This document shows, in pieces, positions 12,281 through 59,275 of a stretch of DNA of 64,000 nt. The stretch covers positions 62,001 to 126,000 of the forward strand of contig JADGJC010000002.1 in NCBI GenBank assembly GCA_027596075.1. Reading direction: 5' to 3'. The notes under the pieces are model-generated. The model saw nothing but the letters and a program-made list of their open reading frames with translations, made no database searches and was not told the origin of the DNA. Position 1 is the first letter of the stretch. Each line of letters begins with the position of its first letter. The DNA comes from Rhizophlyctis rosea (taxonomy: Eukaryota > Chytridiomycota > Chytridiomycetes > Rhizophlyctidales > Rhizophlyctidaceae). A program made the position numbers and the translations under genes.

Positions 12281-12657
12281 TAGAGTAAAAGGGATCAGGA
12301 GTGGAATGTTAGTGGTGTATGTAGGGAGTAGTTGTGTGATTTTGTAGAAATGATAGATAGTGGGTGAATGTGTTCACCTCACTAGAGGCAGCTAGATCTG
12401 TACCAACAGGGTCAATTGGACAGATGACACTTCGCACTCCGTGCATTTGGGCAATCCCCTTGAAATCCCACAGTCGTGTTCGGCAGTCACCTTCATGATC
12501 AGCCGGAGTCAATTCTTAAATACCAAAAATTATATATTGAACGATGCCTAATTCTCAAAGTGAAAAACAAAATGAGAGTATGGTGTGTGTGGGGTTCTGC
12601 CTAAAACTACTATCTACAAAAGCTCTCTAGCTCCTACTGACTTCCCCTACTCTGTCT
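12281..12657. other. Convergent intergenic gap
   Basis: About 375 bp between the ends of the MCP1-like gene and ADE4. AT-rich in its second half (around 12515-12560). No gene seen. Confidence 0.3.
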
Positions 12658-14720
12658 CTACTTGCGCCGCGGCGTACTCGGTGCCCCATAATTATTATGC
12701 AATCCTACCACGTTCGCTGCTACAGGTACTTTGGCCGCCTTCGCCGAATCACTACGAAGAGATTCTAGTTCTAGCAGGTACTCCTCCGTCACGTCGCCCG
12801 TTACATAACATCCGTTGAACACGGAGATGTCGAAGGTTTTGATGGCGGAGTTATACTTTGCTACGGATTGGACCAGGTCGTCGAGATCTTGGTAGATGAC
12901 CTTATCTGCTCCAATCTCGGATGCGATCTCATCTTCTGTTCGGTTGAAGGCGACCAGTTCTTGCCGGATGGGGATGTCGATACCGTACACGTTGGGGAAG
13001 CGAAGGGGAGGAGCACAGGATGCAACGTAAACCTTCTTCGCGCCTGCTTCGCGTGCCATTTGGACGATCTCTTTTGATGTTGTACCGCGGACGATGGAAT
13101 CTGGAAAGATGCAAACATTCAGCAACTTCCTCCTAACGAGAACCGCAAGCGCAATCATGACGTACCATCCACTAGCAGAACATTCTTCCCTGTGAACTCC
13201 ATCGTCATCGGATTCAGCTTTTGCCTGACAGACTTTTTTCTAAAAACGAGAAGCAATGAGATCGTGCCTTCGCATCCAAACGCAAAGCTCCAGTTGACCA
13301 ACCTTTGCTGTTGGCCGGGCATGATAAACGTTCGTCCAACATATCGGTTCTTGATGAAACCTTCCCGATACAGAATGTTCAACTCATATGATGCCTGCAA
13401 AGCGGATGATCGAGCTGTATCCGGGATCTAGGTTCCAAAGCATGAGCCCAATCGTTCCAACTGACACCAACCGACGAATGCTACGAACCGGAATGATTAC
13501 GTCGATATCCATGTTAGCCTTCATCTTCCGCTGCACAGCCCCAGCCAATGCCGAACCCATCGCCAATCGCGCTTTGTACACTGAAATCCCATCCATGATC
13601 GAATCTGGACGCGCGAAATAGACGTACTCAAAAATACAAGGAGTAAACTCCTTGGGGCGTGCACACTGCCGCGTTACAAGTCCCCGCTCTCTGGTGATTA
13701 TGATAGCCTCGCCTGTGATGATCTATGAGACGCGCGCTCCCACGAATCCATCATCAGAATCAAACACCCACCTGGCTTGACATCCGTGAAGTTTGTGAAA
13801 CCCAACGCTTCCAACGCCACACTCTCCGATGCCATCATGTAATCGGTTCCCTCCGCCGTTTTCCGTTCACCGTAAATCAGCGGCCTGATGCCATTAGGAT
13901 CCCGGAAACCTATCAGACCAAAACCGGCAATCATGGCGACACAGGCGAAGCCGCCTCGCACTTGCGCGAAAACCCCCTCCAAGGCGGCGAAGATGTCATC
14001 TTCCTTCACCCTGAAAATGATATGACAACAGCGTGAATCAGAATCGAAAGTGTCCCTGTTGAGGTACTAGTGAGGCATACCTGAACTTTCCGGTTCTGTT
14101 CAGGTAATCCGCAAAGATGTTCAACAAAACTTCCGAGTCTGAATCAGTATTGACATGACGATGCGCCTCGTGATCCAAGAAATCCCGCAGCTCCTTCGCG
14201 TTGGTCAAATTCCCGTTCTATGACATTGGAGTGTTAAGTCAGATTCTTGTCATAGCAAAAACCGAGTGCACGCGTTGCCACATACATGTGCGATGACGAT
14301 ACCGTAAGGGCTGTTTACATAGAATGGTTGTGCCTCTGCGTCGGCCGACGTGCCAGCCGTCGGGTACCGGACTAAGGGAAGCAACATAAGTACTACTGCC
14401 CCCAAAAGAAACCGTTTTACATCACCACATACCGTGACCCACTCCCATCGCGCCACGAAGGTCTGCCAGTTGATGGGGTTGGAAGACGTCGCGAACCATA
14501 CCGTTTCCTTTGCATTGATACAGCCGGCCTTTATGACCACAGGTGATAATACCAGCGGCATCCTGGCGGGAAGAGCTGGTCAGCTTTCGCCCAGATATTG
14601 AATCACGTCGGCACGAGTACTCACCTGACCACGGTGCTGAAGGAGCCCCAAGGACTCATAAAGGTCACCGCTGCAGTTGGCGTTCGGGTCCGCCAAGATA
14701 AGACCAATTATTCCACACAT
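12658..14720 (-). CDS. ADE4: Amidophosphoribosyltransferase (glutamine PRPP amidotransferase)
   Basis: First committed enzyme of purine synthesis: transfers ammonia from glutamine to PRPP to give phosphoribosylamine. The protein begins [13 protein letters not shown] (ATG at 14718-14720), so Cys2 is the glutaminase nucleophile and there is no propeptide of the type found in vertebrate enzymes. LQHRGQ follows in exon 1. The internal part shows [16 protein letters not shown] (about 13900) and [11 protein letters not shown]. The PRPP-binding motif [15 protein letters not shown] is split by an intron at about 13098-13163. The C-terminal part has [20 protein letters not shown] and ends at the TAG at 12658-12660. 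Several introns of 50-90 bp. A TGAGTCA element lies about 320 bp upstream (15038-15044); purine genes in yeast are under Gcn4/Bas1 control, so this may be functional. Confidence 0.93.
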
Positions 14721-15372
14721 TTTGGTTGAGCAAAGTCCTGCGAGTTGCAGGAGTCAACCTGCCGGGATACTTGTATATGCGTGCGGATAGTGGTCGGGTT
14801 TATAAGCTGTCCTACGCAAGGGAAGGAGCGAGAACAGCAGTGCTGCACAGAGGTAGGTGGGGCGGTGATGGACCAGAGGCCAAAAAAGAAGAAGAAACCA
14901 CGCGCAGGAGTGCCTCAACCCTTATTGCCAATCGACCACCCGAACAATTTCTCACCCACTCTCGTTGGTGGCACATGATGTGGAATCATCAATGGTTCGC
15001 CAAACATTTTTTGAAATTCGGGAGGCGTGCATCATAGTGAGTCACTGGCGGTGTCCCACTTTCAGTATGGCCCTGGGGCTCTCAGTGATCAAAAACATGA
15101 TCGCGGATACCCAGAAACTGATCATGGACGCGATCGGACGGGTCAATGATACCCGCAGTCCGAAAGGTCAAACATGACAGGGCTAAGCACCCTGGGGTCC
15201 ATGTTCTGGGCCGCAGTCAATCCCGTCTGCGTCTGCAGACCTGCTCCAGACCTTGCCTCGCGGCCCTCGCCTTTTGAGTCTCCGAATCGCTCACTCTCCA
15301 TAAATCCCGCACACTCCCACATATTATCCGAGATATCCCCTGCCATCAGCATAGGGTAATCAATATTGGGAC
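14721..15372. promoter_or_regulatory. Divergent region, ADE4 / TB2-REEP gene
   Basis: About 650 bp between divergent starts. It contains TGAGTCA at 15038-15044. Open frames here (for example 15143-15397 on minus) have no recognisable product. An upstream exon of the TB2/REEP gene could hide here. Confidence 0.35.
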
Positions 15373-17769
15373 ATGCTACACAGCATACTTCTAGCAACTT
15401 GTTATTCTATCGCTTCGTACTCCACGCTAAAAGCCCTTCAGTCTGAGCGCCCAAACGCAAAACACATCGCACAGCTATGCACACTGTGGATAGTCCTAGC
15501 CGTATATCGTAGCCTGGAAGGCATTGCAGATGCGTTGGTTTGGTGGTATGCTTGTACTGGTTGTCTGGTTTACAACTGACACCAACCAGCTAACCTTTGG
15601 GTTTCCAAAGGCTACCGTTCTACAGCCATGCCAAAGCGACTTTTTTCGTTGCTTTGTGCATCGGTCAAGGCTCACTTGCAAGTATAATATATCGGCGAAC
15701 AATTTTTCATTGGTTACGAATGAGAGAAAAGGACATTGACAATGTAAGCTGAATGTCTCCGGGTTGTTTGCTGTATTCAAGCTCAGTAATGCTGGTATCG
15801 AAAGGTTGTCGGTTTATGTACCAGCCAAGCGTCGTTCATGATAGATACATGTACGCGCCAGGCCCAAAGCTGCTACCTACGCACAATTGACGGAGTCACA
15901 GCCACCTACCGAAGCGTACATACTTGGAGGGTAAGTCTGAGCATGCAATAATTTGGCTAAGCCCTTGTTGAGACCCACTTCCAGCTCCGACCTGGTCGTA
16001 TCGTCAATTATCTCATCGATGAAAACCTGGATGATGATACCAATGCCCCTACTCAACGTATCCAAAGCGTTGCACATACTGCAACGGAATCGCTCGGCAC
16101 CCCCTTTTCGGCAGACATCCATACCTTCCCATCACTTGAAATTGCGCCAAATTATCAGCCGAACACCGCAATATTCACCTCGACCAGCCAGCCTTACTCC
16201 GACAGTCCATCGATAGCATATCCCTCTGCCACCCCCAATTCATCAACCGTGAAATCGCGAATCAGTTCGCAGCACAATCTCACTATCACAGGTATTGATC
16301 GCGAAAACACAATCAGCCCGCAAATCGATGATGATGAAGACTATGGCGGGAGGGGATCAGCTTGGGGGTTAGAACGGCACAGAAGGGTTGCCTCCGTGGA
16401 AGCAGATGCCCGGCCGCCGCGCAATGAGCGTCCGCGATCTGCCGTTTCAAGCTGGGTAGCGTTGGACTCCATACCCATGGATCGTGACATAGATGCTGTT
16501 CCTACAAACAGCGCTGATCAGCCTGTGATCGCCCCACACCCAACGGGGCAACCAGTGCCGCATTTACCCGTCGTGGAGTACTCTAATGATGACAGTCCGA
16601 GACCACCTAGTGCATCTTCGGACTCAGCCAGTACTTTGACACTTGCACCTACAATTGCCCAAATTGACGATTTAATCATTCGAGCTCGTCAACTTTTGGA
16701 AGGCGGGAGTGGCAGCCAAGACGGAACTAGTGTCGATGTCACTTCTTTTCAGGATAAACAACGGGATTATGGGGTGGACCGAATGGCGGAGGACGTAGAC
16801 TTGGAACCTGCTTCTGTGCCTGAAGAACGAAATACGGCAGCGAGATCGTCCTCTGAGATCCAACAGTCATTCCAAGCGGAGTCGACCTCTCCGCGCCTCA
16901 AAAAGGTGAAGAGCCCTCCACTGGGACGGACGCGCAAGGTCGATCGGAGGGGTGTCGGGACGGCAGCGTATGGTGGTAGGACCATCAGTAGGACGAAGCG
17001 GGGTGAGAGTGCGAGCTTAGTTAGAGGTGTCGGTGCAGACGACGTCTTCAAAAGTTCAAGTATGAAGGTTGGGGAAGTCAAACGGCGGAGGGTACAGCGC
17101 ATGGCATTGACAGGATCGGATGCGGGTAGCGACATTGTTGGCAGTCATGTTGAGGGCAATGATGATCAACCTGCTGGGAGCTCTCCGTTGCATGCAGAAG
17201 AGGATAGCCCAGCACCGACAGCGTCTTCATCACGGTTGAGAAGATCTCGATCCAATCTGGAGTCGCAGCCACGAACGCATGAATCTTTGTCAGGTACCAC
17301 CCGCGACGCATCCACTCTGACTAGAGCATCTACCAAATCATCACGTGCTGGGCGACCAACATGCGCAGCAAGCCTTCCTCCTGAACCGGGCATTCACTCA
17401 TCAGCAACAACCTCCAACCTACCGCAGCGCGTTCCTCGACAGCGTCCCCTTCTCACTTCCAAATCCAATCCCAACCTTTCCTCCGTAACATCATCAACCA
17501 CATCCACGCGCGGGGTAGTATCCACATCTGGCCGACATACCCGATCAAAATCACACCTGGCAAGCACTCAGAAAGAAGGAGAGGACCAGCCTGATGGTCC
17601 GCCTGAACCTGTTGTCCGGGATCCATTTGATTTTGATCAGGCTTTGGAGGAGGAATTGTTCAAAGTCCATGTCCGGAAGGAAGCAGTTATTGGCGGTGGT
17701 GGGACTGCAAAGCGGTCATCAAGTCGGAAAGGTGGCGGTACCCGGCCAGGCTCTTCACATGTGACATGA
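15373..17769 (+). CDS. TB2/DP1/HVA22 (REEP/Yop1-like) membrane protein with long disordered C-terminal tail
   Basis: ER-shaping hairpin protein family. The TB2/DP1 domain occupies the first 110 residues: ASYSTLKALQSERPN, LCTLWIVLAVYRSLEGIADALVWW, then across an intron (15547-15609) LPFYSHAKATFFVALCIGQ and IIYRRTIFHWLRMREKDIDN. A 69-nt exon is inferred at about 15862-15930 and the next at 15985, read from LRPGRIVNYLIDENLDDD in one open frame to the stop at 17767-17769. This tail, about 590 residues, is rich in Ser, Arg, Pro and acidic patches with no recognised domain (for example KKVKSPPLGRTRKVDRR and SRLRRSRSNLES). Yop1 and plant HVA22 are under 200 residues, so the tail is unusual; fusion of two genes is possible if the exon chain at 15740-15985 is wrong. 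Start at 15373 is the first ATG before the domain. Confidence 0.7.
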
Positions 17770-27153: not shown

Positions 27154-27311
27154 GTATTTTCTACACACCCCTCTCCGGGGTTATGCATACGAATGAGTAT
27201 GCCAGAGTAAATTACAGTTGCTCGTGCTACCTAATGAGCGGAGAGTATAGACTAGACATATCTAAACTATACAATGAGCAACTGAAATCTGATGGGAATG
27301 CCGATGACAGA
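27154..27311 (+). repeat. 158-bp dispersed repeat, copy A
   Basis: Starts GTATTTTCTACACACCCCTC and ends GGGAATGCCGATGACAGA. It is nearly identical, with one single-base indel and a few substitutions, to 34755-34911. It begins only 20 bp upstream of the ANKZF1 ATG. A 12-bp piece of its left end (GTATTTTCTACA) recurs at about 27546. The sequence after the right end differs between copies, which gives the right border. Confidence 0.85.
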
Positions 27312-28970
27312 CGCCCCAAGAAACAAAAGCACCAACTACGCGTTGCGATCCCAAGTGGCGGTTCCCGCCAAATACCGCGATGTGGTGAACCGTTGTCAGC
27401 GGAGGGAGGAGGACAGGCAAAAAATTGAATACTGGTAAGACAAGTCCAACCAGGCCCAGCTCATTTTCATGAAACATTCAGCATACTTTGGGTGGGTTGA
27501 AGAACGGTAACTTCACCCCCCATCTTCCTCACAAATCGGCAGTTTGTATTTTCTACAGTTTGGTGAGTGACTTCGAGCACTTCACCCCGTCATAGCTTCC
27601 GTTACTCAGCATTCTGGTGAATAGGACCCATACTGTAGCCGCCACTCAAGTAGTGTATAGTCTATCGCTTTCAATATGGGCAAACACCTCACCTGACGAG
27701 GCAGATAGCGAGGCAACGTTGGATGATGACGATGAAGATAGCGGCATGCTGGATGATGACGGTGGAGATAGTGAGGTAGAAGCAGCCGGCGAGGATGGAG
27801 ATTACGACGAAATGCTGAGTGATGACGATGGAGTTGCAACTTTTACTGCGGGTTCTGCGGAAATCTTCAATGAGAGCAATGCCCCATCACCCACTCTTAC
27901 ACCCCGCCCCGAAGCGTCTCCGTCACCTACTCTTACACCCATCCGCGATCCGTCTTCATCACCCCATCTTGATCAACGCAGCGATGGCGAGTGGGAAGGA
28001 GAATTCAATGCACATCATAACTTCATTGGGCGGGAACTGGACGAGCCAATGGAGGAGACGGACGGGGATGAAGAGGGGGAGGGTGATGAGGGAGTTGGTG
28101 AAGGGGCTGGCGGATACACTACGACGTCAAATGATTTCGACCTCCCAGCTGTCATTGCTGAAGTTCCAGTGGGTGAAGCTAGTGTGATGACGTGCGATGG
28201 TGGCGGAAACGCGACGAATATTGAGCGGGGTCAGAATAGTGGCTCGGATGCAGCGGAGGGTCAATCTTTGGCGGACGGCTATGTGGGCGAAGTGGGGCAA
28301 GGAGGCGGCAGTCATCGCCACCGGGGAGAAAGTAACCGGGTTGGGCAAAGTCATCATCATCAAGGAGAGCCCTCATCGTCGGCAGCATCATCGGTCACCA
28401 CGAACATACAGTGGATGGTTGCGGAACAAACAGGGCTTGGTGACGGAGAGACGGTGTTGCCTCGTCGGTCACGGATGTCGGTCACAGAAAACATACAGTG
28501 CACAAGCGAGCATGACGCCGAGCTTGAGCAATTGGCGGAACGCTTCCATTCGACTGAAGACGAAGGCATCCGACTCCTTCTAAACCAGAAAAACAAAATG
28601 GCGCAATAGGAAGCAATGCTCGCCACATCATACGAAGAGTCAGCTAAATTGAGCCGCGCGGGGGATGTAGCATTGAGGACGCAGGAAAGGCATTCAGAGG
28701 AGGAAGAGAAGACTACCCAGCGGAACTTCAAGCGGAAGGAAGAGGTGATGAAACACCAGAAGAACACGGTAGACTCACTCAGGAAAACGATTAGTTTAGG
28801 GAATCAATAGAGGGAAGTGTTGGACGAGGGAGAGTAATCTGTTGGAAAGCAAAATTGCGATCATGGAATCACGGTTGGCAGCCAAGAAAAGGAATTCGGC
28901 GTTGAAACGACAATACGCAGAGTTGGAAAGGCAGATGGAGGAGTCGGGTTCTCATGTTGACGAAGATTGA
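27312..28970 (+). pseudogene. Degenerate acidic / coiled-coil gene, possibly mobile-element derived
   Basis: An open frame of 330 codons at 27617-28609 is very rich in Asp, Glu, Gly and Ser (for example DEADSEATLDDDDEDSG, NAPSPTLTPRPEASPSPT). Its reading frame goes on after an in-frame TAG (28606-28608) as a helical, charged stretch (AMLATSYEESAKLSRAGD, EEEEKTTQRNFKRKEEVMKH), meets a second TAG near 28808, and after a frame change continues as SNLLESKIAIMESRLAAKK and ALKRQYAELERQMEES to about 28970. Upstream, 27312-27430 also has a basic open segment (KYRDVVNRCQRREEDRQK). Two stops and one shift in an otherwise coherent coiled-coil tail suggest decay. It lies directly downstream of repeat copy A. 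An acidic region plus C-terminal coiled coil resembles accessory proteins of some DNA transposons, but I cannot name a family. Confidence 0.5.
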
Positions 28971-30399: not shown

Positions 30400-32934
30400 T
30401 CATCGCCGGTTTCTAGACATGAGCCGGTCCAGCCCTTCCTCTTTTGAACGCGCCTTAGCCTGCACAAGCTCAGCCTCCGCAACCTCCATTTGACGTTCCA
30501 GGATCTCCAACTGAGGTCGCAACTCTAGATACCGTCCTTCTGCAAGCGCAAACGCATCCTTCCGCAATGCCTTCCCTGCCCTTGCCTCGTTTTCATTTTC
30601 GCGCGCTTGGATTTGCCAATGTACAGCTGTAGTAATGTTGGTCAATGTTGGTGCAAGAGACACTTTGGGTTCTGCTACCACTTACATGTCCGAGCATAGA
30701 AATCCCGTAATGACTCCTTTGGTAGAGGGTCATTTTCACCAACCGGTACGCCAGCAATTGGCTCCGTTTCCGGTGCTACTGCAATAGGGCTGGCACTTGA
30801 GCCATTGCTCCCATCTACCATGTCGGATGTCTTCTCACGCTTCCCCTTCTTGGTCTTTCCGCTATGTTTGACCCCTTCTTCATTGTCACTATCACCATCC
30901 TCCACCACCGCAGCTGCAGCATCTTCCTCCTCTCCATCGTCATCTTCCTCCTCTCCATCGTCATCTTCCTCCTCTTCCTCCTCATCCTCCTGTTCTTCTT
31001 CCTCCTCCTCCTCCTCATCATCATCATCACTGTCTTCCCCGAGCCATTTGACGGCATTCAGATCGTCAGTCAAGATACAATTCCACCGATCCAGCTTGTC
31101 CAGATTCAGAGACCAAAAATCCGCTAAGGACACTTCACGCGCCCCTTCTTCAAAAATGCCTCCAAATCTAATGAGATATGTCAGTGCACGTTGATAGCAT
31201 AATATTTTTTATACACGAAAACTTACACATAAACAGTATTGCGAGCGACCGACATCATCGCGTTAAAGCGTGGGGAAGGAAGGTCAACGCCGACTCGTTG
31301 CTCATCTTCGTCATCAGAACTATCGGAGTCAGATGAAGCAGCGTTTGCATTTCTCCGCTTCTTCTTCCCCTTCTTCCCGACACCCTTCAAATTCAGCGGG
31401 TACCACTTATTTGAATCTGAGAAACGTTGGTCAAGAATAAGCACACTCTAATTTTTCGAGAAGCCGTCTTACCTATCAGATATTGATACGCATCATTATG
31501 ACAGATGGACTCCAATTTCTCGTCGGACTCCTGAATATCTGACACTCCTTTGAAAAGTTCAGCACAATGCAACAACATATTATTAAGAAGGCATTTCAGA
31601 CTACCTCCGAATAAAATGCCTTTCCCCTTGTATGGCACAACGGTACATCCACTACGAAGGGTGGGCGCCATTCCCCCCGGCTTTTTCCGCCTTTCCCATC
31701 TGCAATGGATCTTAACATTTGCCGACACTGCTATTGTATCTTTAGAGGCTGGACGTACCTGATCGCCGAGAGATCGGAGTTCATTTTCAACATCCACATA
31801 TCGTTATGAACCATGCCCTGTGCCTTCTGTCCCTTCTGCCCCTTCACAATGACTTTGCAGTATCCGCCATACATGCTAATCACGTCCCCAGATGCGAAAA
31901 ATTGAAATCCAGACCGCGCCGTCGGTCTCGGTTCCGGGATGTCGAGTTTCTGCCATTTGAACTCCGTGGTATCAAACAGCCAGAGGTCATCGTAACTGTC
32001 CAACACTGTTATTCGATCTTGCGTATCATGGAGCTCAGTAACCTCCCACTCACTATCTTGTTTCCGCTGATGTATCATAGAACCCTCCAAACAGTACCAG
32101 ATAGTGTTTCCACACTGCCATGCGATGACCCGACCGAGGTGGAGGCCGTCCTCTCAATTCCAGTTTCTCCCACGCGTTCGTTTTTAAGTCCAGAGTCCAA
32201 AAATCCTTGTAATGAAAGAACGAAGTCTCATTTGGACTTACGAATTCACCTATAAGCAAAAATAAGCGGAAATGAAAAATACAGAACGAAGGGTCACCGG
32301 CTCACCGCCAAAGAGGAAGATGCGGCCAGATGGCAGAACTGTGAGTTGATGTGAAGATCGCGGACCAGGGGAATTTGGTGATGTTATTCGCCGCCATTCA
32401 TTCTTTTCAACATTGTATCGGAAAAAGTCATTGTACATGTGCACTTTCTGTCCATCAAAATATTCGCCTGACACGTCATTCGTGAGCAGACCACTCAAAG
32501 CTGCAAACGCTGAGCACGGCGAAACCTACCTCCAAACAATAAGAGCTCGTCAAGATTCAAGGGATTATTAACGAAAGAGGCGTTCGACCGACGACTGGGT
32601 GGGGGAGCGTTCGACTCTTCCGTCACAGTGTACAAAGCCTCTTGCTGAAACGTGGACGGTTCAGTCAAGGTGACGCCCGGTCCAAGTGTTGCAATTACCA
32701 ACCTCCTTTTGAAAAGTGGCAAGGATAGCGTCAATGTCCTCTTCAGGTTCCCCCAGGTCATCTTTGGCTTTCTTCGTTTGCTTTCGTTTCGACTTTGCTT
32801 CTTCCTGAGCAATGACGTGAGTTGGGTCGAATATCGCACTGAGCTGACAGATAGCGCACCTTTTGTTTGCTCTTCGCCCCCGCTCCACCCTTCTCTTCCT
32901 TCTTCTTCTTCTTCTTGTCTCTTCCTTTACCCAT
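30400..32934 (-). CDS. Kelch-repeat protein, KLHDC4 / Kel3-like
   Basis: Kelch beta-propeller protein of the KLHDC4/yeast Kel3 type. ATG at 32932-32934 starts MGKGRDKKKKKKEEK, the lysine-rich opening shared with the human protein. Kelch motifs follow in order: LDELLLFGGRF (about 32550), EYFDGQKVHMYNDFF, SGRIFLFGGE, YKDFWTLDLKTNAWEKLEL, RSGHRMAVWKHYLVLFGGF, YDDLWLFDTTEFKWQKLDIP, FFASGDVISMYGGYCK, and after a long loop SPRFNAMMSVARNTVYVFGG. The loop contains GVGKKGKKKRR. The C-terminal third has a very acidic run of about 50 Asp/Glu (30890-31045) and a charged helical end ARSKEEGLDRLMSRNRR; stop at 30400-30402. Molecular role is not settled for the family. Divergent from the rhodanese-phosphatase gene (220 bp). 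Confidence 0.88.
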
Positions 32935-34754: not shown

Positions 34755-34911
34755 GTATTTTCTACACACCCCTCTCCGAGGTTATGCATACGAATGAGTA
34801 TGCCAGAGTAAATTACAGTGCTCGTGCTACCTGATGAGCGGAGAGTATAGACTAGACATATCTAAACTATACAATGAGCAACTGAAATCTGATGGGAATG
34901 CCGATGACAGA
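34755..34911 (+). repeat. 157-bp dispersed repeat, copy B
   Basis: Same sequence as copy A (27154-27311) and the same orientation. Homology ends right after CCGATGACAGA in both. Both copies keep the frame that would read SGEYRLDISKLYNEQLKSDG, but with no recognisable protein around it. Confidence 0.85.
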
Positions 34912-35058
34912 AGCATTGACAGAAACATGGGGTACGTCTTTGACAATAAGATGGGGAATGCAGGTATTCGACGGGAAGGCTCGGCCCTCATAAACTCGTC
35001 GTCTGCAGTTCCGCCCAGTATTCTGTCGGAGGCTCATACCACTCCCAATCTATGCTTC
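34912..35058. other. Gap between repeat copy B and mtIF-2 3' end
   Basis: The stretch 34414-35058 as a whole holds repeats and no supported gene. An open frame running from copy B (34834) to 35217 overlaps the mtIF-2 C-terminus on the opposite strand and is treated as chance. Confidence 0.3.
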
Positions 35059-49441: not shown

Positions 49442-50062
49442 ATGAAGTCCCTATACCTCGTCGGTTGTCTCTTGGCTCTGCTCGCTCTGTTGAGCACCCC
49501 AGTCGACTCTCTCTCCCATAAGGCGGAGATGTTGAAAAACCTCGCTTTGGAAGAGCAAAATGGTATCAAGTGCACGGATAGGTGGTGCGGTTGCCACCAA
49601 GGCTATTGTTGTGAGTAGTGGTAGTGAAATTCATTTTCATCTTGAAGTATGACAGCACTGACGTTAATGATAACCGCAGGGAAGAATATGACTGGCTTGG
49701 ACGTGTTCCCATCGGATGTTGTTTGGTCCCCCTACCGGTTCTGTTACAAGGACAAGCACTGCTTGATGGGTTGTGTGAAGAAGGCGAAGGCTACGGTTGG
49801 CACCTGTATGGTCTTGGTGAGTACCAATATTAGTCCAGTGAGGGAATGGATCTGTATTGAACATATCAAATAGGATGATGGATTTCCCCCAGAAACCGCC
49901 ACCAGCATCTTATGCTCTCAGGACTCGGATTGCTTTACCTATCGCGAAAAGCTTTACCCTGATGAGGTTGTCAAACGGGTGAAGCGCGAGGTCACATTGG
50001 ATGATGACACCAAGGGCCGTATGGAGGCCGTCCTTCGGGCATTGGCCGCCGCAGGAAATTAG
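49442..50062 (+). CDS. Small secreted cysteine-rich protein
   Basis: Predicted extracellular protein of about 160 residues with no recognised family. ATG at 49442-49444; signal peptide MKSLYLVGCLLALLALLS with a likely cut after TPVDS. Three exons: the first ends at GCHQGYC, the second runs from WKNMTGLDVFPSD through YRFCYKDKHCLMGCVKK to GTCMVL, the third starts DDGFPPETATSILCSQ. The mature chain has ten cysteines, consistent with five disulfides: KC, WC, GC, YC, FC, HC, GC, TC, LC, DC. The last 45 residues are cysteine-free and charged, with a KR-V-KR-E sequence that could be a Kex2-type processing site, and an Ala-rich helix at the end. Both introns have typical borders. It could be an effector-like or cell-surface protein; nothing in the neighbourhood tells which. 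Confidence 0.72.
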
Positions 50063-50215
50063 CTTTCCTCCAAGCTTTTGAACATTTCCATCATCCCTTC
50101 CAACCGTAGGAATACATGTCCATACCCCCTCTCGCCCGTTCCCTTTGTTACATAGATGGCCTCGTAGTGCAGTAGCTGAGCCCAGTTTATATATAGTAGT
50201 AGTGATACGTACATG

Positions 50216-50326
50216 ATACAATGACATACTCCCGAGCCCTTCCGGACCCGGCTGCCGAGACCTTGCGGCCGGCGAGGCCGCCAGCGCAACTCTAAAGAGC
50301 TTTTACTGAACGACCCCTCTGTCCAG
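50216..50326 (+). repeat. 111-bp repeat, intergenic copy
   Basis: From ATACAATGACATACTCCCGAG to CCCCTCTGTCCAG. It is about 90% identical to the reverse complement of 50944-51054, which is an intron of calpain-7. It lies between the convergent 3' ends of the secreted-protein gene and calpain-7 (46 bp from the latter's stop codon), and ends in CAG like a splice acceptor, although here it is not in any gene I can see. Confidence 0.9.
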
Positions 50327-50371
50327 TGCCTAAACACCGAAACACCTCCAAACCTCCACCGTGTACATTGC

Positions 50372-53300
50372 TTATGGTTTGTTTATCTTCGCGATGTTTA
50401 CCAATTTGTCTGAGTAAACAAACGCCCGGAATTGCCCAGCCACAGGCTTCCACGTCGAAAACACGACCGCGTATCCATGTCCAGGTTGTAGAATGAAATC
50501 ATTCAGAACAACGCCCTGGATCCAATCGATATAAGGCCCTGACGATGCCTTCTCCGCCAAAGTCTTCGTTCGTTCATCTCTTTCAAAAAGTGTGATGTTA
50601 AGGGCCGGTGGAGGTCTGATGCTGGACGCTTGTAACCGGATCCTGTGAAGGAAAAAGCATCTGAACAACATGTGCCACGACAATACCATCACGGAAAAGA
50701 ATTCTCACGTGACGCGAGCCTGTTCCGTCGCTTGTATCAAAAACTGGGGGTTGAGAAAGAAGTCGGGTCCTCGGGATGAACCTCTCGCGTTCACTTCCAA
50801 TTCCCAAGCGCCCTGTATGGTCTTCTGATACATCCCCTGCGCATAAAAAGTCAGTGTTTAGCCACTCCCAACGGGGCGCTACGATGAAATGACACACCTC
50901 TCCTTCAAGTGGAATCGATGAAACTGCAATGCGGCTCGTCGACCTGAACAGAGGGGTCGTTCAGTAAAGCTCTTTAGAGTTGCGCTGGCGGCCTCGTCGG
51001 ACGCAAGGTCTCGGCAGCCGGGTCCAGCAGGGCTCGGGAGTATGTCATTGTATTACCTTATTGTCAACATAAAATTGCCCTCCATCTTTGGCTCAAAGGT
51101 AGACGCAACTATCGTGTATTCACCAGCTACCAAGAAGAATAGGCATGAGTATCGCTACGACTTTCCTCAAAGACGTTTCAAAGCACTCTCTGCTCACGTT
51201 TGACGTGTTTGAAATCGAAATAACAAAATCCATGTCGGAAGTCACCAGTGGAGACGACTGTTTCATCCACAGATGCACTGTCGCCTGCAGTCAGTCATTA
51301 CGCTCAATTTAATCAATTTCGGTTTGACTTACTAGCACACTCTCTTTCCACCTCGCATGAGCTTCAGATTGATAGGGTAATCCTTGGGAGCTTCAAGCAT
51401 CGCGAACACCGCACACTTGTCAGACTCAGGGGGAACAGTAACTCTGTAGTTTGGGTTGTTCACAAACGTGGGGTGTGATGCCGCTCCACCCGCACTTTCA
51501 TCCTTCCAGCAGCCTTTAATCTGTGGAATGAAATGCATGAGCTCAAGTCTTCTGCAAACTTCCTTCAAGGTGGCAGACCTTCGTCTCAAACGCATGTCGT
51601 TTTGGCACTTCCCCAATTTTGAAGGGCGAGAACGCATATACCCTCAGGCTGAAATCTAATGTTTTTCGTCTTTCATGTTGGGACATGACGATGGTGTATC
51701 TAGATTGTCCTTGTGGAGCATTGAACCGCACAAGGACATGTGGGCTACCATCATCGTCAGCATGAGTTTCCTTTTGGCAGCCTTTTCGCAATCGCACCTA
51801 TTGATGTAAACTCCCCGAATCATTGGGTTATCGGGATAGTGGACCCGGCCGCAGTTTGTTTTTGCGAACACATGCATGGTGATGTAATCGGTGTTTTCTT
51901 CCTGCCGCATTGGTTATGGCGGCCAGCTTATTTTCTAAGGCAAACCCAAACTTACCGTAACGGTCATATGCTTCGATAACAATAGCCAAATGGCCCCTTC
52001 CTTTGGGTCTTTCACATCGACTTCCACTGTTGCGTCAGTGGTAAGTTTGGACAGATTGTAATGCCGTGTTACGGTGTATACTCACGACCATATTGCGGAT
52101 TGGACCCTGAAATATGTGTTGGATGATCTGCTCAAAGCGCTTTTCGGAATGAATGCAACACACCGAGATTGTAATTGTCTTTGATCGGTCCCTCGTAAGC
52201 TGGCCAGGAGCTGGTGTTGAATGGACGTCAACAGTCATGAATGCCCAGTAGATTCGCTTTTACTTACACATGCAATACATAGCGATTGTCGAAAAGTTCG
52301 GGATTCCTATAATGGCGGTTAGTTTACAACGGGTGAGTTCCAACACACACGACTTACCAGTTCAAATGCAAACAATCAAATTTCGAACAGATGGACTGAT
52401 ACTCTATCCAAAAGATTCCTGCTTGCGGTATGAGCAAGTGCCATTAGACCGCCCGAAAGAACTGCAATTTTGAGGTACCATCATCGATTTCCAGCGCTCC
52501 GGCTTGGTCATAGTTGAGCGCAGATTTCAGCTCGGAAGTCCAATTTTGCTCATCTATGTGCGAATATGGGCCTGCAAGAAAAGCGTCAGCATCTTGTTGG
52601 TTAAGTCCGAGCGAGTCAAAATACCTTTCCAGCGTTTGTGACTCCAAGGATTCTTCAACTGTCGTCAAGATGATTAGATTGTGCAATTCATTTGTATATA
52701 ATCTTCGTGCGCCGTACCTTCAAAAGTCTACGCCCTAATATCTCTCTCATGTCGAGCACTGAACGTACTGTGAGGACATTGTCCGTCTGTGGTTATCGCG
52801 AGATCCATACCTGCATATGCATGAGATGGGACCAAACCCAACGCCTCCGCATCCTGCTCCGAAAGTTGCCCCTGGAAGGATATCGGTGATGTTGTGGTGA
52901 GATGCTTTCATATCAACGAGACAGGAGTCATTGCCTACCGTAGCGATTGTAATCAAAACATCGCCGTGCTTGCAGCCGTCGTGCATCCGGCGCCATTGTT
53001 TATCTGGCACAAACGTTTTGCTACACTGAAGAGGTCAACATGTGACTAAGGAAATAAGTCCTGGTACATACTCTTGCATAAGCACGTGCTCGGGTATCCA
53101 TCCAGTCAATGCTGAGGTGAAGGATCGTTAATCTTTGCCCTGCCACCATTCCCTGTCGAGATGGGATACCATATAAGTCAATACTCGAATTGCTGTCATT
53201 CGTCGCAAACGGTGAGTATCAACAGAACAGTGAAGACTTCGTCAATGAGAGCTACGTACGATCCCGGAAAGTCGAAGCCGCCCATCAGTTTCATGTACTA

Positions 53301-55026
53301 CAGTTCGCACTGAGCATTCGGTCTGAACAGACATTGATTGTGATCACGCTTACCGCTTTTTCAACGATGCTTGGCCACAACTCATTCCGGTTTGCAGAAT
53401 ATGTGCACATCAGTTTCCCTAATGGGAGTGACTTAGTCCCATTCAGGCGACACACAAAGACCGGAAGGGCTCGGGAGTATTCATTGTATCACACACGAAG
53501 ACCGAATGCGTACCATCTTTGCTCACCGGCAGGAGATCATCCACGACTGCAAGATAATTAAACATTGGCCATCATGAAAGATGTTCGCAAATTCTCACCA
53601 ATCTGCAATAGGATGCGCTCAAGGTCAATCATTAGCTTCAAACTCGACTGATGTTTACAGTACCTTTCTCGGAATCCCATTGAACACCAGTTTAACCTGA
53701 AAGCAATCAGAAACCGTCATAAATCTAATTCTCCTTCCGCACAGACAATAGTATCATTAGTATTACCATGTACTTTCCACTGGGATTATACATGGGCTGT
53801 CCATCCCTGTCCTTCGGAAAGATGCATGCCGTGATAAGCTGCAGATTACGTGAGCGCAGGCGTCTGGCGCCGAAAATTGGTGTCCCCTCACCCTTTTGTG
53901 AAATTTACGCTCATAAGTTGCACTAACGCAAAGTGAGGCTACAAACGAACAATCGGTCACAACGTCTTGCGTGATACTGGCGCTCGAGATAAGCTGGATC
54001 ATTTTGGGCTTTGCCATGAATTGGAACGGACGTTGCCAGGAACCGAATTTTGCGGTTTGCTTTGGTGAAAGCCTCAGAAGGCCATCGGGGTCGGTAAAAG
54101 GCTCCTTACTCCAGAACCGTTCATGCATATCGATGTCTAGCCACGGCAGGTAAGTTTTTCCATTCACGTAGGATGTTTTCTTCAAGACACTGATCTCTTC
54201 CGGCGTTAATCCTAGGGCGTTTGGAGCTGTGTCTACGGCCGATTTGGACGTGGTACGCTTGTGTTGTGGCCCAGGCGATGAGGCATCATGCTTTTGCCGC
54301 AACTCCTCGGCCCGCGGCACTATGATCGCCAGTCTGCGTTCCATCTCACCCCGCCTGTCTTCCGAGACGGCTATCCATGATTGTTAGCATCTCAACATTG
54401 CTGTTTTTGAATCAATGGTTGGATAGCGAGGCACACCTTTTGCCACGTCAATGTACACTTCAGCTGCTGCAATGTACGATTGGTATGCTTCCCCAGTTAA
54501 TCCTTTCTCATCAGCAAGCACAGCTTGGTCGAAAAGAAACTGTAAGGGACAGAATTCTGATTGTCATGACCATGTTTTGGGCTGAAAGGGTAGCGAGTCT
54601 GGCCAACGTACCTGCGCCCGCTGCAACTTGTTTTCAGATGCAGTAGCATATGATGTTGTGCTCGGTCGACTGGACCCGCCGGTCTGCTCCAGCTGTCTTT
54701 TCAAAAGCTCAGCCCGCTCCACATACTCCACCACCCTCCTACGCGCCTGCTGCTTTTTATTATCATCGGTCTCAACTGAGAACGATGACCATATATATTA
54801 GCTTCATCAAGTATTGTATGAATAGTTGAGTTTCAAGTCAGTGTGTGCTGCAAAACATACGTTTGCTGATTCGCATTAACAGTTGGGACAGTTCAGTGTA
54901 GTACAATACGGCAAGCTGACTGTCGCGGTCACTGTCGGCTTCCACGGCCCAGCTCGCCAGAGTCCATGCTTCCGAATATAGCTCCCGTATAGACGGTGTG
55001 CCTGGTGCGACACCCGAGGGATTCAT
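50372..55026 (-). CDS. CAPN7: Calpain-7 / PalB-type cysteine protease with two MIT domains
   Basis: Calpain-like protease working with ESCRT-III; fungal PalB/Rim13 process the ambient-pH transcription factor. N-terminus: MIT domain 1 (YSEAWTLASWAVEADSD, about 54970) and MIT domain 2 (FLFDQAVLADEKGLTGEAYQ, about 54500) bind ESCRT-III tails. Protease core: EEISVLKKTSYVNGKTYLPWL, catalytic Cys in VTDCSFVASLCVSATYERKF (about 53960), VVDDLLP, ANRNELWPSIVEKA, His in LGLVPSHAYA (about 52820), Asn in LKNPWSHKRWKG (about 52655), NWTSELKSALNYD. Two C2-like domains follow: ESAGGAASHPTFVNNPNYR, TGDFRHGFCYFDFK, EYTIVASTFEPKMEGNFML, and last GHGYAVVFSTWKPVAGQFRAFVYSD; stop 50372-50374. Complete catalytic triad. 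The start at 55026 is the best ATG before MIT 1; an in-frame ATG at 55125 is an alternative. Introns at 50944-51056 and 53432-53526 contain the dispersed repeat. Confidence 0.9.
50944..51056 (-). repeat. 113-bp repeat forming a complete intron of calpain-7 (introner-like)
   Basis: On the minus strand it starts GTAATACAATGACATACTCC and ends GACCCCTCTGTTCAG. Removing it exactly joins FMLTIR to STSRIAVSSIPLEGE in frame. Nearly the whole intron matches the intergenic copy at 50216-50326 in inverted orientation. Mobile sequences that supply a whole intron are called introners. Confidence 0.88.
53461..53490 (-). repeat. 30-bp fragment of the same repeat inside another calpain-7 intron
   Basis: Minus-strand GATACAATGAATACTCCCGA followed by GCCCTTCCGG matches the first 30 bp of the 111-bp repeat with one deleted base. 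It lies inside the 95-bp intron 53432-53526, which separates VVDDLLP from SLPLGKLMCTYSANR. Confidence 0.8.
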
Positions 55027-58135: not shown

Positions 58136-59275
58136 ATGCCGATGCGGATCCGTGATCGATTAGTGAGGTTCTTGGCCAGTGTATCCTCAAAAGCATGGTG
58201 TTGCCGATACATCATCAGAACCAACAACTCGACCAAGGCTGAAGAACGTCTCTCTCCTATCGAGTACGAAATATTTCAAACATATTGTCGTTTCATTCAG
58301 ATTGCGACACGTCGTCTGAACAGGTATGTGGAGTAGTGTCCTTGAACATAATGGTACCATCCGTATGCATCCGTATGCAAATGCTTATGCGGGATTTCAT
58401 TGACGATTATCAACCATTTTTGGCAGTCACCGTCTTGCTGCACTATGAGGTCACCAACTGGCCCAGACTTTACCCTCCCGCCGTGCATATATCCGACTGC
58501 CAAACCGTACAACGGATTTTCAACACTGCTACATCGTTTCGGCCGATACGAACGCATCCGGAACACCTACATAAAGGAACAGCAATTGGCCTCCGTTGTA
58601 CCCAACACCCGCACTGGTGACGCGAGAAGAGAAGGGTCCGTGGACACATTGGTCGGGGCCGCTTCTGACGGGGAGGCTGTTACTTGTGCTGCCAACGTGC
58701 CTGAATCGGACGGTATCAACCTGCCACCTTCGCATCGTCAACCAAACCTCGGACCTCCATCCACTTTGGATCGCAACGTCGCCATCGATGTACTATCCGC
58801 CCAGCTTGCTCGACCAGCTCTTGGGGAGATGATGGACCAGCGCGTAATGCTAACACCGCGACAAGAAATCAAGCTTGAGCTTGCGCGATTGGGGGCGATC
58901 GTGGAGAAGCAAGTGCGCAAAGGTCACCCTCAACTTGGGACAACTCCTCCAACTCAACAAGGCAACGCACCAGTCGGCTTTGGAGAACCCGGAGTTCCGA
59001 AGCCGGTACGTTAGAGAGCCTCTTGGTTCAATTCCCTTCCATTCATGTCGGTACGCCCAATTCTCAACATATGCGACGGCCAGTATATTCCCACATCATC
59101 TCCAACCAATCCCAATTCCGACTTCGCTTCGCCCAACCCGTTCCTCCCTATTTCATCCATCCTTGGTTCGGCAACTTCCTCGCAAATGGCCAACTACATC
59201 CCACCAGAAGACGTGGAGAAATGGGAATTTGCGCGGGAGGTGCTCCAGCGACATGCTTGGTATGCACAGAAATGA
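58136..59275 (+). CDS. Unrecognised protein sharing the helical repeat unit of the gene at 18.8 kb
   Basis: No known family. Proposed exons: about 58136-58321 (MRIRDRLVRFLASVSSK...), about 58429-58997 (GRYERIRNTYIKEQQLAS onward) and about 59082-59275 (YIPTSSPTNPNSDFAS to EDVEKWEFAREVLQRHAW). The first junction is not resolved in frame, so the N-terminus is tentative; the third exon and stop (59273-59275) are firm. Near 58835 the protein reads DQRVMLTPRQEIKLELARLG then AIVEKQVRKG, which aligns without gaps with NQRVEITPGQRQKMEMGRLT then GIIERQDRGR in the other gene. Only one clear unit is present here, perhaps preceded by a weak one (VAIDVLSAQLARPALGEMM). The tail is Pro/Ser-rich. Function unknown. 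Confidence 0.6.

What the first reader, a model, noticed from the sequence alone, without database searches (positions are those of the whole stretch)
50216..51056. A 110-bp repeat that exactly constitutes a calpain-7 intron, with an inverted intergenic sibling 0.6 kb away
The minus-strand intron 50944-51056 matches 50216-50326 (inverted) over about 110 bp with roughly ten differences, reaching the 3' CAG in both. The match stops at the splice sites, so the repeat and the intron are the same unit. That is the signature of an introner-like element, here with a copy landed outside any gene. Fungal introners were described mainly in ascomycetes; a family in a zoosporic fungus would be notable.
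Basis: partly seen in the sequence, partly recalled or inferred. Interest (0 to 1): 0.85.

Follow-up and report, generated by a model that had tools for sequence, protein, structure and literature searches.

The report
Local inverted duplicate forms calpain intron
In this chytrid-like fungus one intron of a calpain-7 gene is almost exactly a 110-base sequence that also sits, flipped, just past the gene's end; the known copies are confined to this one gene, so it looks like a one-off local copying accident that made an intron, not a family of invading introns.

Summary
Intron 27 of a 30-exon calpain-7 gene (50944-51056, minus) matches 50216-50326 (plus) at 94.6% over 111 columns. The match covers intron nt 4-113, ends exactly at the 3' splice site and enters neither exon.

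The introner reading meets its own refuter. In the 44.1-Mb assembly a DNA search finds only these two copies, and four short patterns along the unit, up to 3 mismatches, find no other credible copy.

I found a third, partial copy: 31 nt at 53461-53491, inside intron 8 of the same gene, flanked by 13-nt direct repeats with one mismatch. Without filler plus one repeat intron 8 would be 54 nt. The two introns carrying unit sequence are the longest of 29 (113 and 95 nt; median 59).

Best reading: a one-off, local, inverted templated insertion during break repair; DNA beside the calpain 3' end supplied filler that became intron 27 and enlarged intron 8. Direction, process and splicing are inferred; no relatives' DNA or RNA-seq was available. 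A Pol theta-like gene is present. New member of a known kind: idiosyncratic intron gain.

The parts
50944..51056 (-). Intron 27 of the calpain-7 gene (113 nt, phase 2, GTAATA...TTCAG); nt 4-113 are the repeat unit
50216..50326 (+). Inverted sibling of the unit, in the 310-nt gap between the calpain stop (50372, minus) and the end of a plus-strand ORF (50062)
53461..53491 (-). Partial third copy (31 nt), matches 50214-50245 with one 1-nt gap; carries TTCC like the 3'-flank copy, where intron 27 has TGCT
53419..53513 (-). Intron 8 (95 nt), host of the partial copy; 54 nt without filler plus one repeat
53450..53504 (-). Partial copy with its two flanking direct repeats (GGTCTTCGTGTGT / GGTCTTTGTGTGT, one mismatch, 41 nt apart)
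50372..55026 (-). Calpain-7-like gene, 30 exons, 942 aa

Best explanation
A one-off, local, inverted templated insertion. During repair of a double-strand break, or a replication template switch, in the calpain-7 gene, about 110 nt of DNA beside the gene's 3' end was copied in inverted orientation into coding sequence at an AG|GT site. The insert brought a CAG at its 3' end; the donor GT came from the exon's own AGGT (or its 4-nt duplication); the whole insert is now removed as intron 27. The same or a similar event put about 28-31 nt from the same template into intron 8, leaving a 13-nt target duplication. Shown: three copies in one gene, the exact 3' boundary, the gene structure, no further copy found in the assembly. 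Inferred: direction of copying, break repair as the process, splicing. The branch site is not identified.
For: Only two full copies in 44,103,614 bases; 24-mer and 3'-end 21-mer patterns give only these two; the 5'-end 21-mer adds one 3-mismatch site. Partial copy with 13-nt flanking repeats: in the 64-kb window a scan for 13-nt flanks with at most one mismatch around 25-33-nt inserts finds only this site and one low-complexity tract. The partial copy shares TTCC with the 3'-flank copy. Intron 27 G+C is 58% against a mean of 45% (sd 5%) for the other 28. The two introns with unit sequence are the longest of 29. Intron 27 has a 4-nt in-register direct repeat AGGT at its splice sites; the other 28 have 0-3 nt. 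A gene with Pol theta-like polymerase and helicase pieces lies on contig C608.
Against: No relative's DNA, so absence of the intron in sisters is untested. One other intron of the gene has even higher G+C (60%). AGGT at both ends is close to the splice consensus and 28 introns are a small background. No YTRAY branch motif lies in the last 60 nt of intron 27 (nor in 10 other introns). Three sequences without an outgroup do not fix direction; the bases just before ATACAATG in the partial copy (GTG) agree equally with the intron (GTA) and the 3' flank (ATG). No clear target duplication flanks the 3'-flank copy or distinguishes donor from recipient.
Confidence: 0.5

Rival explanations
1. The intron is the older copy. 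Its sequence was copied from intron 27 to the gene's 3' flank, as DNA by local template switching or through the excised intron RNA used as a template, and a piece reached intron 8 from there.
For: The 3' end of the match is exactly the 3' splice site, as expected if the excised intron was the template.
Against: The 5' end lacks the GTA of the intron. Intron 27 is unusually long and GC-rich for this gene. The partial copy resembles the 3'-flank copy at two diagnostic bases, so this route needs an extra step. A DNA-level copy would have no reason to stop at the splice site.
Confidence: 0.33
2. Introner-like element family with an intergenic copy.
For: The unit equals the intron almost end to end.
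Against: Two full copies and one fragment, all in one gene; published families have 5 to more than 2,000 copies per genome (PMC9860276, passages). The tool's counts are lower bounds and very common words are skipped.
Confidence: 0.04
3. Retrocopies of a small structured RNA (SINE-like): both full copies are antisense to a folded RNA and the partial copy is its 5'-truncated 3' end with a target duplication.
For: On the strand antisense to the intron both copies fold better than nearly all shuffles (z -2.8 and -3.3, 1 of 200 shuffles each); 13-nt duplication at the partial copy.
Against: The fold survives no better than under random changes: 41% and 23% of 1000 simulated mutants in two schemes are at least as stable. 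No Rfam match reached its gathering score in 50150-51100. Retroposition would not confine copies to one gene.
Confidence: 0.05

Closest known systems
[quoted passage not shown] PMC4202315, passages read; review PMC3443670, passages)
   Same: Single event, insertion with short flanking direct repeats, secondary staggered-break insertions inside introns
   Different: A likely donor, inverted and 0.6 kb away, is visible here; recency and absence in relatives could not be tested
Local inverted templated insertions at yeast breaks (PMC11724301, abstract and passages)
   Same: Inverted copying of nearby DNA into a break
   Different: There most are under 14 bp, up to about 150 bp, and copied from beside the break; here 110 nt from about 0.6 kb away
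Introners / introner-like elements (PMC9860276, passages; PMC4457414, passages)
   Same: Intron and repeat unit coincide
   Different: Not a multi-gene family; one intron only
Tandem genomic duplication at AGGT (PMC3443670, passages)
   Same: AGGT at both intron ends
   Different: The intron does not match its flanking exons, so it is not a tandem exon duplication

Membership tests
Introner / introner-like element | Several to thousands of similar introns in unrelated genes | tested here: not met
   2 full copies and one fragment, all in one gene
Introner / introner-like element | Unit ends coincide with splice sites | tested here: met
   3' end exact, 5' end at intron nt 4
Introner / introner-like element | Terminal inverted repeats or constant target duplications (some families) | tested here: inconclusive
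   No TIR by eye; no tool was run for short TIRs. AGGT (4 nt) at intron 27, 13 nt at the partial copy, nothing clear at the 3'-flank copy
Intron gain by double-strand break repair | Short direct repeats flank the insertion | tested here: inconclusive
   Partial copy: 13 nt with one mismatch. Intron 27: AGGT, 4 nt against 0-3 in the other 28 introns, weak
Intron gain by double-strand break repair | Inserted sequence is filler from elsewhere, not from the flanking exons | tested here: met
   Intron nt 4-113 match the 3' flank and no exon
Intron gain by double-strand break repair | Intron absent at the orthologous position in close relatives | not testable with these tools
   No close relative's DNA is held; nearest calpains are 54-57% identical proteins
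Tandem genomic duplication at AGGT | Intron is a copy of adjacent exon sequence | tested here: not met
   Window self-BLAST shows no match of the intron to its exons
Intron transposition by reverse splicing | Full intron copied, in sense, into another position of a transcript | tested here: not met
   The sibling is antisense to the gene and lacks the leading GTA; the intron-8 piece is partial

The most novel reading that the evidence does not exclude
The locus shows the birth stage of an intron whose donor is still visible: a non-intronic flank sequence seeded two intron changes in one gene (one whole new intron, one enlarged intron), perhaps in one complex repair event. In the boldest form the excised intron RNA itself served as repair template and wrote intron sequence back into DNA beside its own gene. 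The 110-nt inverted pair would also let the excised intron pair with the 3' end of its own transcript.
Probability: 0.15. Interest if true: 0.65.

Novelty: new member of a known kind. Interest (0 to 1): 0.38.

Why it matters
[quoted passage not shown] Here a likely donor, or twin, is 0.6 kb away and a second insertion with its footprint lies in the same gene, so one comparison with a sister chytrid could settle direction and mechanism. It also removes a false lead, a chytrid introner family.

Tried and rejected
Introner family: rejected on copy number. Diverged copies in the DNA fetched by then: BLAST with both copies gave, beyond the known three, only 14-23-nt matches with E 0.24 or more; nhmmer, of which I printed only the first query's part, added none below E 1. 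Off-target pattern hits: one on C290 with 3 mismatches; 14 besides the two exact ones (one with 2 mismatches on C542), where the reversed-pattern control gave 11. Patterns allow no gaps, so one search missed the partial copy itself; (DNA query over intron 8) also missed the 31-nt relation. Short gapped fragments elsewhere in the genome could therefore be missed.

Structured-RNA idea: the fold looked good, but a mutation control shows no constraint; Rfam gave two matches far below their gathering scores, neither on the copies. A 19-kb query did not return its own place, so it is not used as evidence of absence. The repeat 27154-27314 / 34755-34914 is a separate low-copy family with copies on C617. 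Of 33 repeat pairs (700 columns or less, E up to 1e-4) in 280,152 sampled bases only the known pair was checked with a gene model; some others pass a loose GT/AG edge filter that I did not follow up.

Paper searches: introner + intron gain + fungi, 22 papers; intron gain / double-strand break / templated insertion, 341 papers with two of three, 20 listed; introner + chytrid, 2 papers (passages seen of PMC8476143, which do not report chytrid introners; listing only of PMC10716250); spliceosomal intron / inverted copy / intron gain, 279 papers, 12 listed, none with 'inverted copy'; intron gain + template switching + microhomology, 2 papers, listing only.

Full report
Observation. The minus-strand intron 50944-51056 and the plus-strand stretch 50216-50326 match over 111 columns at 94.6% with one 1-nt gap, E 1.6e-42 in the window (core of the arms). 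The differences are 5 substitutions and one indel. The match runs from intron nt 4 to nt 113 and stops at the AG of the 3' splice site; neither exon is included.

The gene. By hand, with homologues as a check, I built a 30-exon calpain-7 model, 55026-50372 minus: 29 GT-AG introns, CDS 2829 nt, 942 aa. Pfam finds MIT, Peptidase_C2 and Calpain_III. The two best of 1103 matches (7992 candidates scored) are chytrid proteins: P0001 Synchytrium microbalum, 54%, and P0002 Borealophlyctis nickersoniae, 57%. An alignment with seven fungal proteins is gapless through the intron-27 junction in 6 of 7; P0002 has gaps there, which may be its own gene model. The intron-8 junction (LPVSKDG|KLMCTYS) is gapless in 7 of 7. 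Introns are 42-113 nt, median 59; the two longest are 27 (113) and 8 (95).

Third copy. Self-BLAST also gave 53461-53491 minus, 31 nt matching 50214-50245 with one gap. It lies inside intron 8. On each side is a 13-nt repeat with one mismatch. A scan of the window for 13-nt flanks with at most one mismatch around 25-33-nt inserts finds only this site and one low-complexity tract at 30932-30936. Removing filler plus one repeat (41 nt) leaves 54 nt, a typical intron length here. The piece has TTCC where the 3'-flank copy has TTCC and intron 27 has TGCT. The three bases before it agree equally well with both copies, so they do not help.

Genome. The assembly has 44,103,614 bases in 634 contigs. 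The full unit gives 2 matches at E<=10, the known two. Patterns with up to 3 mismatches: the 5'-end 21-mer gives 3 hits, the two copies plus one 3-mismatch site on C290; the central 19-mer gives 16 hits, 2 exact and 14 others against 11 for the reversed control; a 24-mer and the 3'-end 21-mer give only the two copies. The tool warns that counts are lower bounds and that very common words are skipped; the pattern results argue against a hidden abundant family. Patterns allow no gaps, so short gapped pieces like the intron-8 one could be missed elsewhere. A self-comparison of 280,152 sampled bases (window included) gave 33 repeat pairs; those involving the unit are the known ones.

Interpretation. 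An introner family needs many introns; one is found. What remains is local copying. The near-perfect 13-nt flanking repeat at the partial copy looks like the footprint of staggered-break repair with filler, and the filler's diagnostic bases match the 3'-flank copy. Intron 27 has G+C of 58% against 45% (sd 5%) for the other 28, although one other intron reaches 60%. Its splice sites carry a 4-nt in-register AGGT repeat; the other 28 introns have 0-3 nt. Together these favour flank-to-intron copying, but with three sequences and no outgroup I put that at one half, and intron-to-flank copying at one third.

Repair enzyme. A search for family-A polymerase gave 6 matches on two contigs, the two above the cut-off on C608. 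The C608 piece matches Pol theta structures best (8.7e-19, against 1.1e-9 for Pol nu), and a helicase piece upstream on the same contig and strand also matches Pol theta best (1.6e-18). The C146 polymerase was not identified. So the enzyme class that can make templated insertions (recalled) seems to be encoded; that it acted here is inference.

Controls against my own ideas. The good RNA fold on the antisense strand is matched by 41% and 23% of simulated mutants in two schemes, so it is no evidence of a functional RNA. No YTRAY branch motif lies in the last 60 nt of intron 27; 10 of the other 28 introns lack one too. PMC11782384 (abstract only) reports direct repeats at or near the borders of all 213 introns it examined, a caution against over-reading AGGT. 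Nothing here shows splicing by RNA.

Literature, from passages unless noted. PMC4202315: Daphnia neointrons formed at breaks, exon-intron direct repeats of 4-12 bp, source mostly unknown. PMC9860276: introner families of 5 to more than 2,000 copies; the word 'chytrid' does not occur in its main text. [quoted passage not shown] PMC8476143: without introners, intron gain is mostly by idiosyncratic events. PMC11724301: local inverted templated insertions in yeast. PMC3443670: seven proposed mechanisms, 5 unambiguous break-repair cases at that time.

Noticed in passing
window 53599-53602 (-): A 4-nt exon (ATTG) between two introns of the calpain gene is needed to keep the frame (IPRK-I-VVDD). The annotated proteins P0001 and P0002 have odd insertions or replacements near this place, as if gene predictors had missed a similar tiny exon there.
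   Followed up: partly
window 27154-27314 and 34755-34914 (+): 161-nt repeat (97.5%) 7.6 kb apart, with two further copies on contig C617; one alignment extends to 285 nt. A low-copy repeat family unrelated to the unit.
   Followed up: partly
window 58159-58228: 70-nt stretch with a 97% match on contig C622. ARAGORN found no tRNA in the window; not identified.
   Followed up: no
window 49442-50062 (+): Convergent neighbour gene that seems, by eye from the ORFs, to start with a signal peptide-like sequence and to encode a small cysteine-rich protein in several exons.
   Followed up: no
contig C112:45446-45606 against 48748-48533, and 147791-147840 against 147952-147904 (genome coordinates): Other short, local, inverted repeat pairs (88-94% identity) on the same contig, not checked against gene models.
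   Followed up: no
contig C608, about 12427-16110 (loci L041, L042, L047): A gene with Pol theta-like helicase and polymerase pieces.
   Followed up: partly
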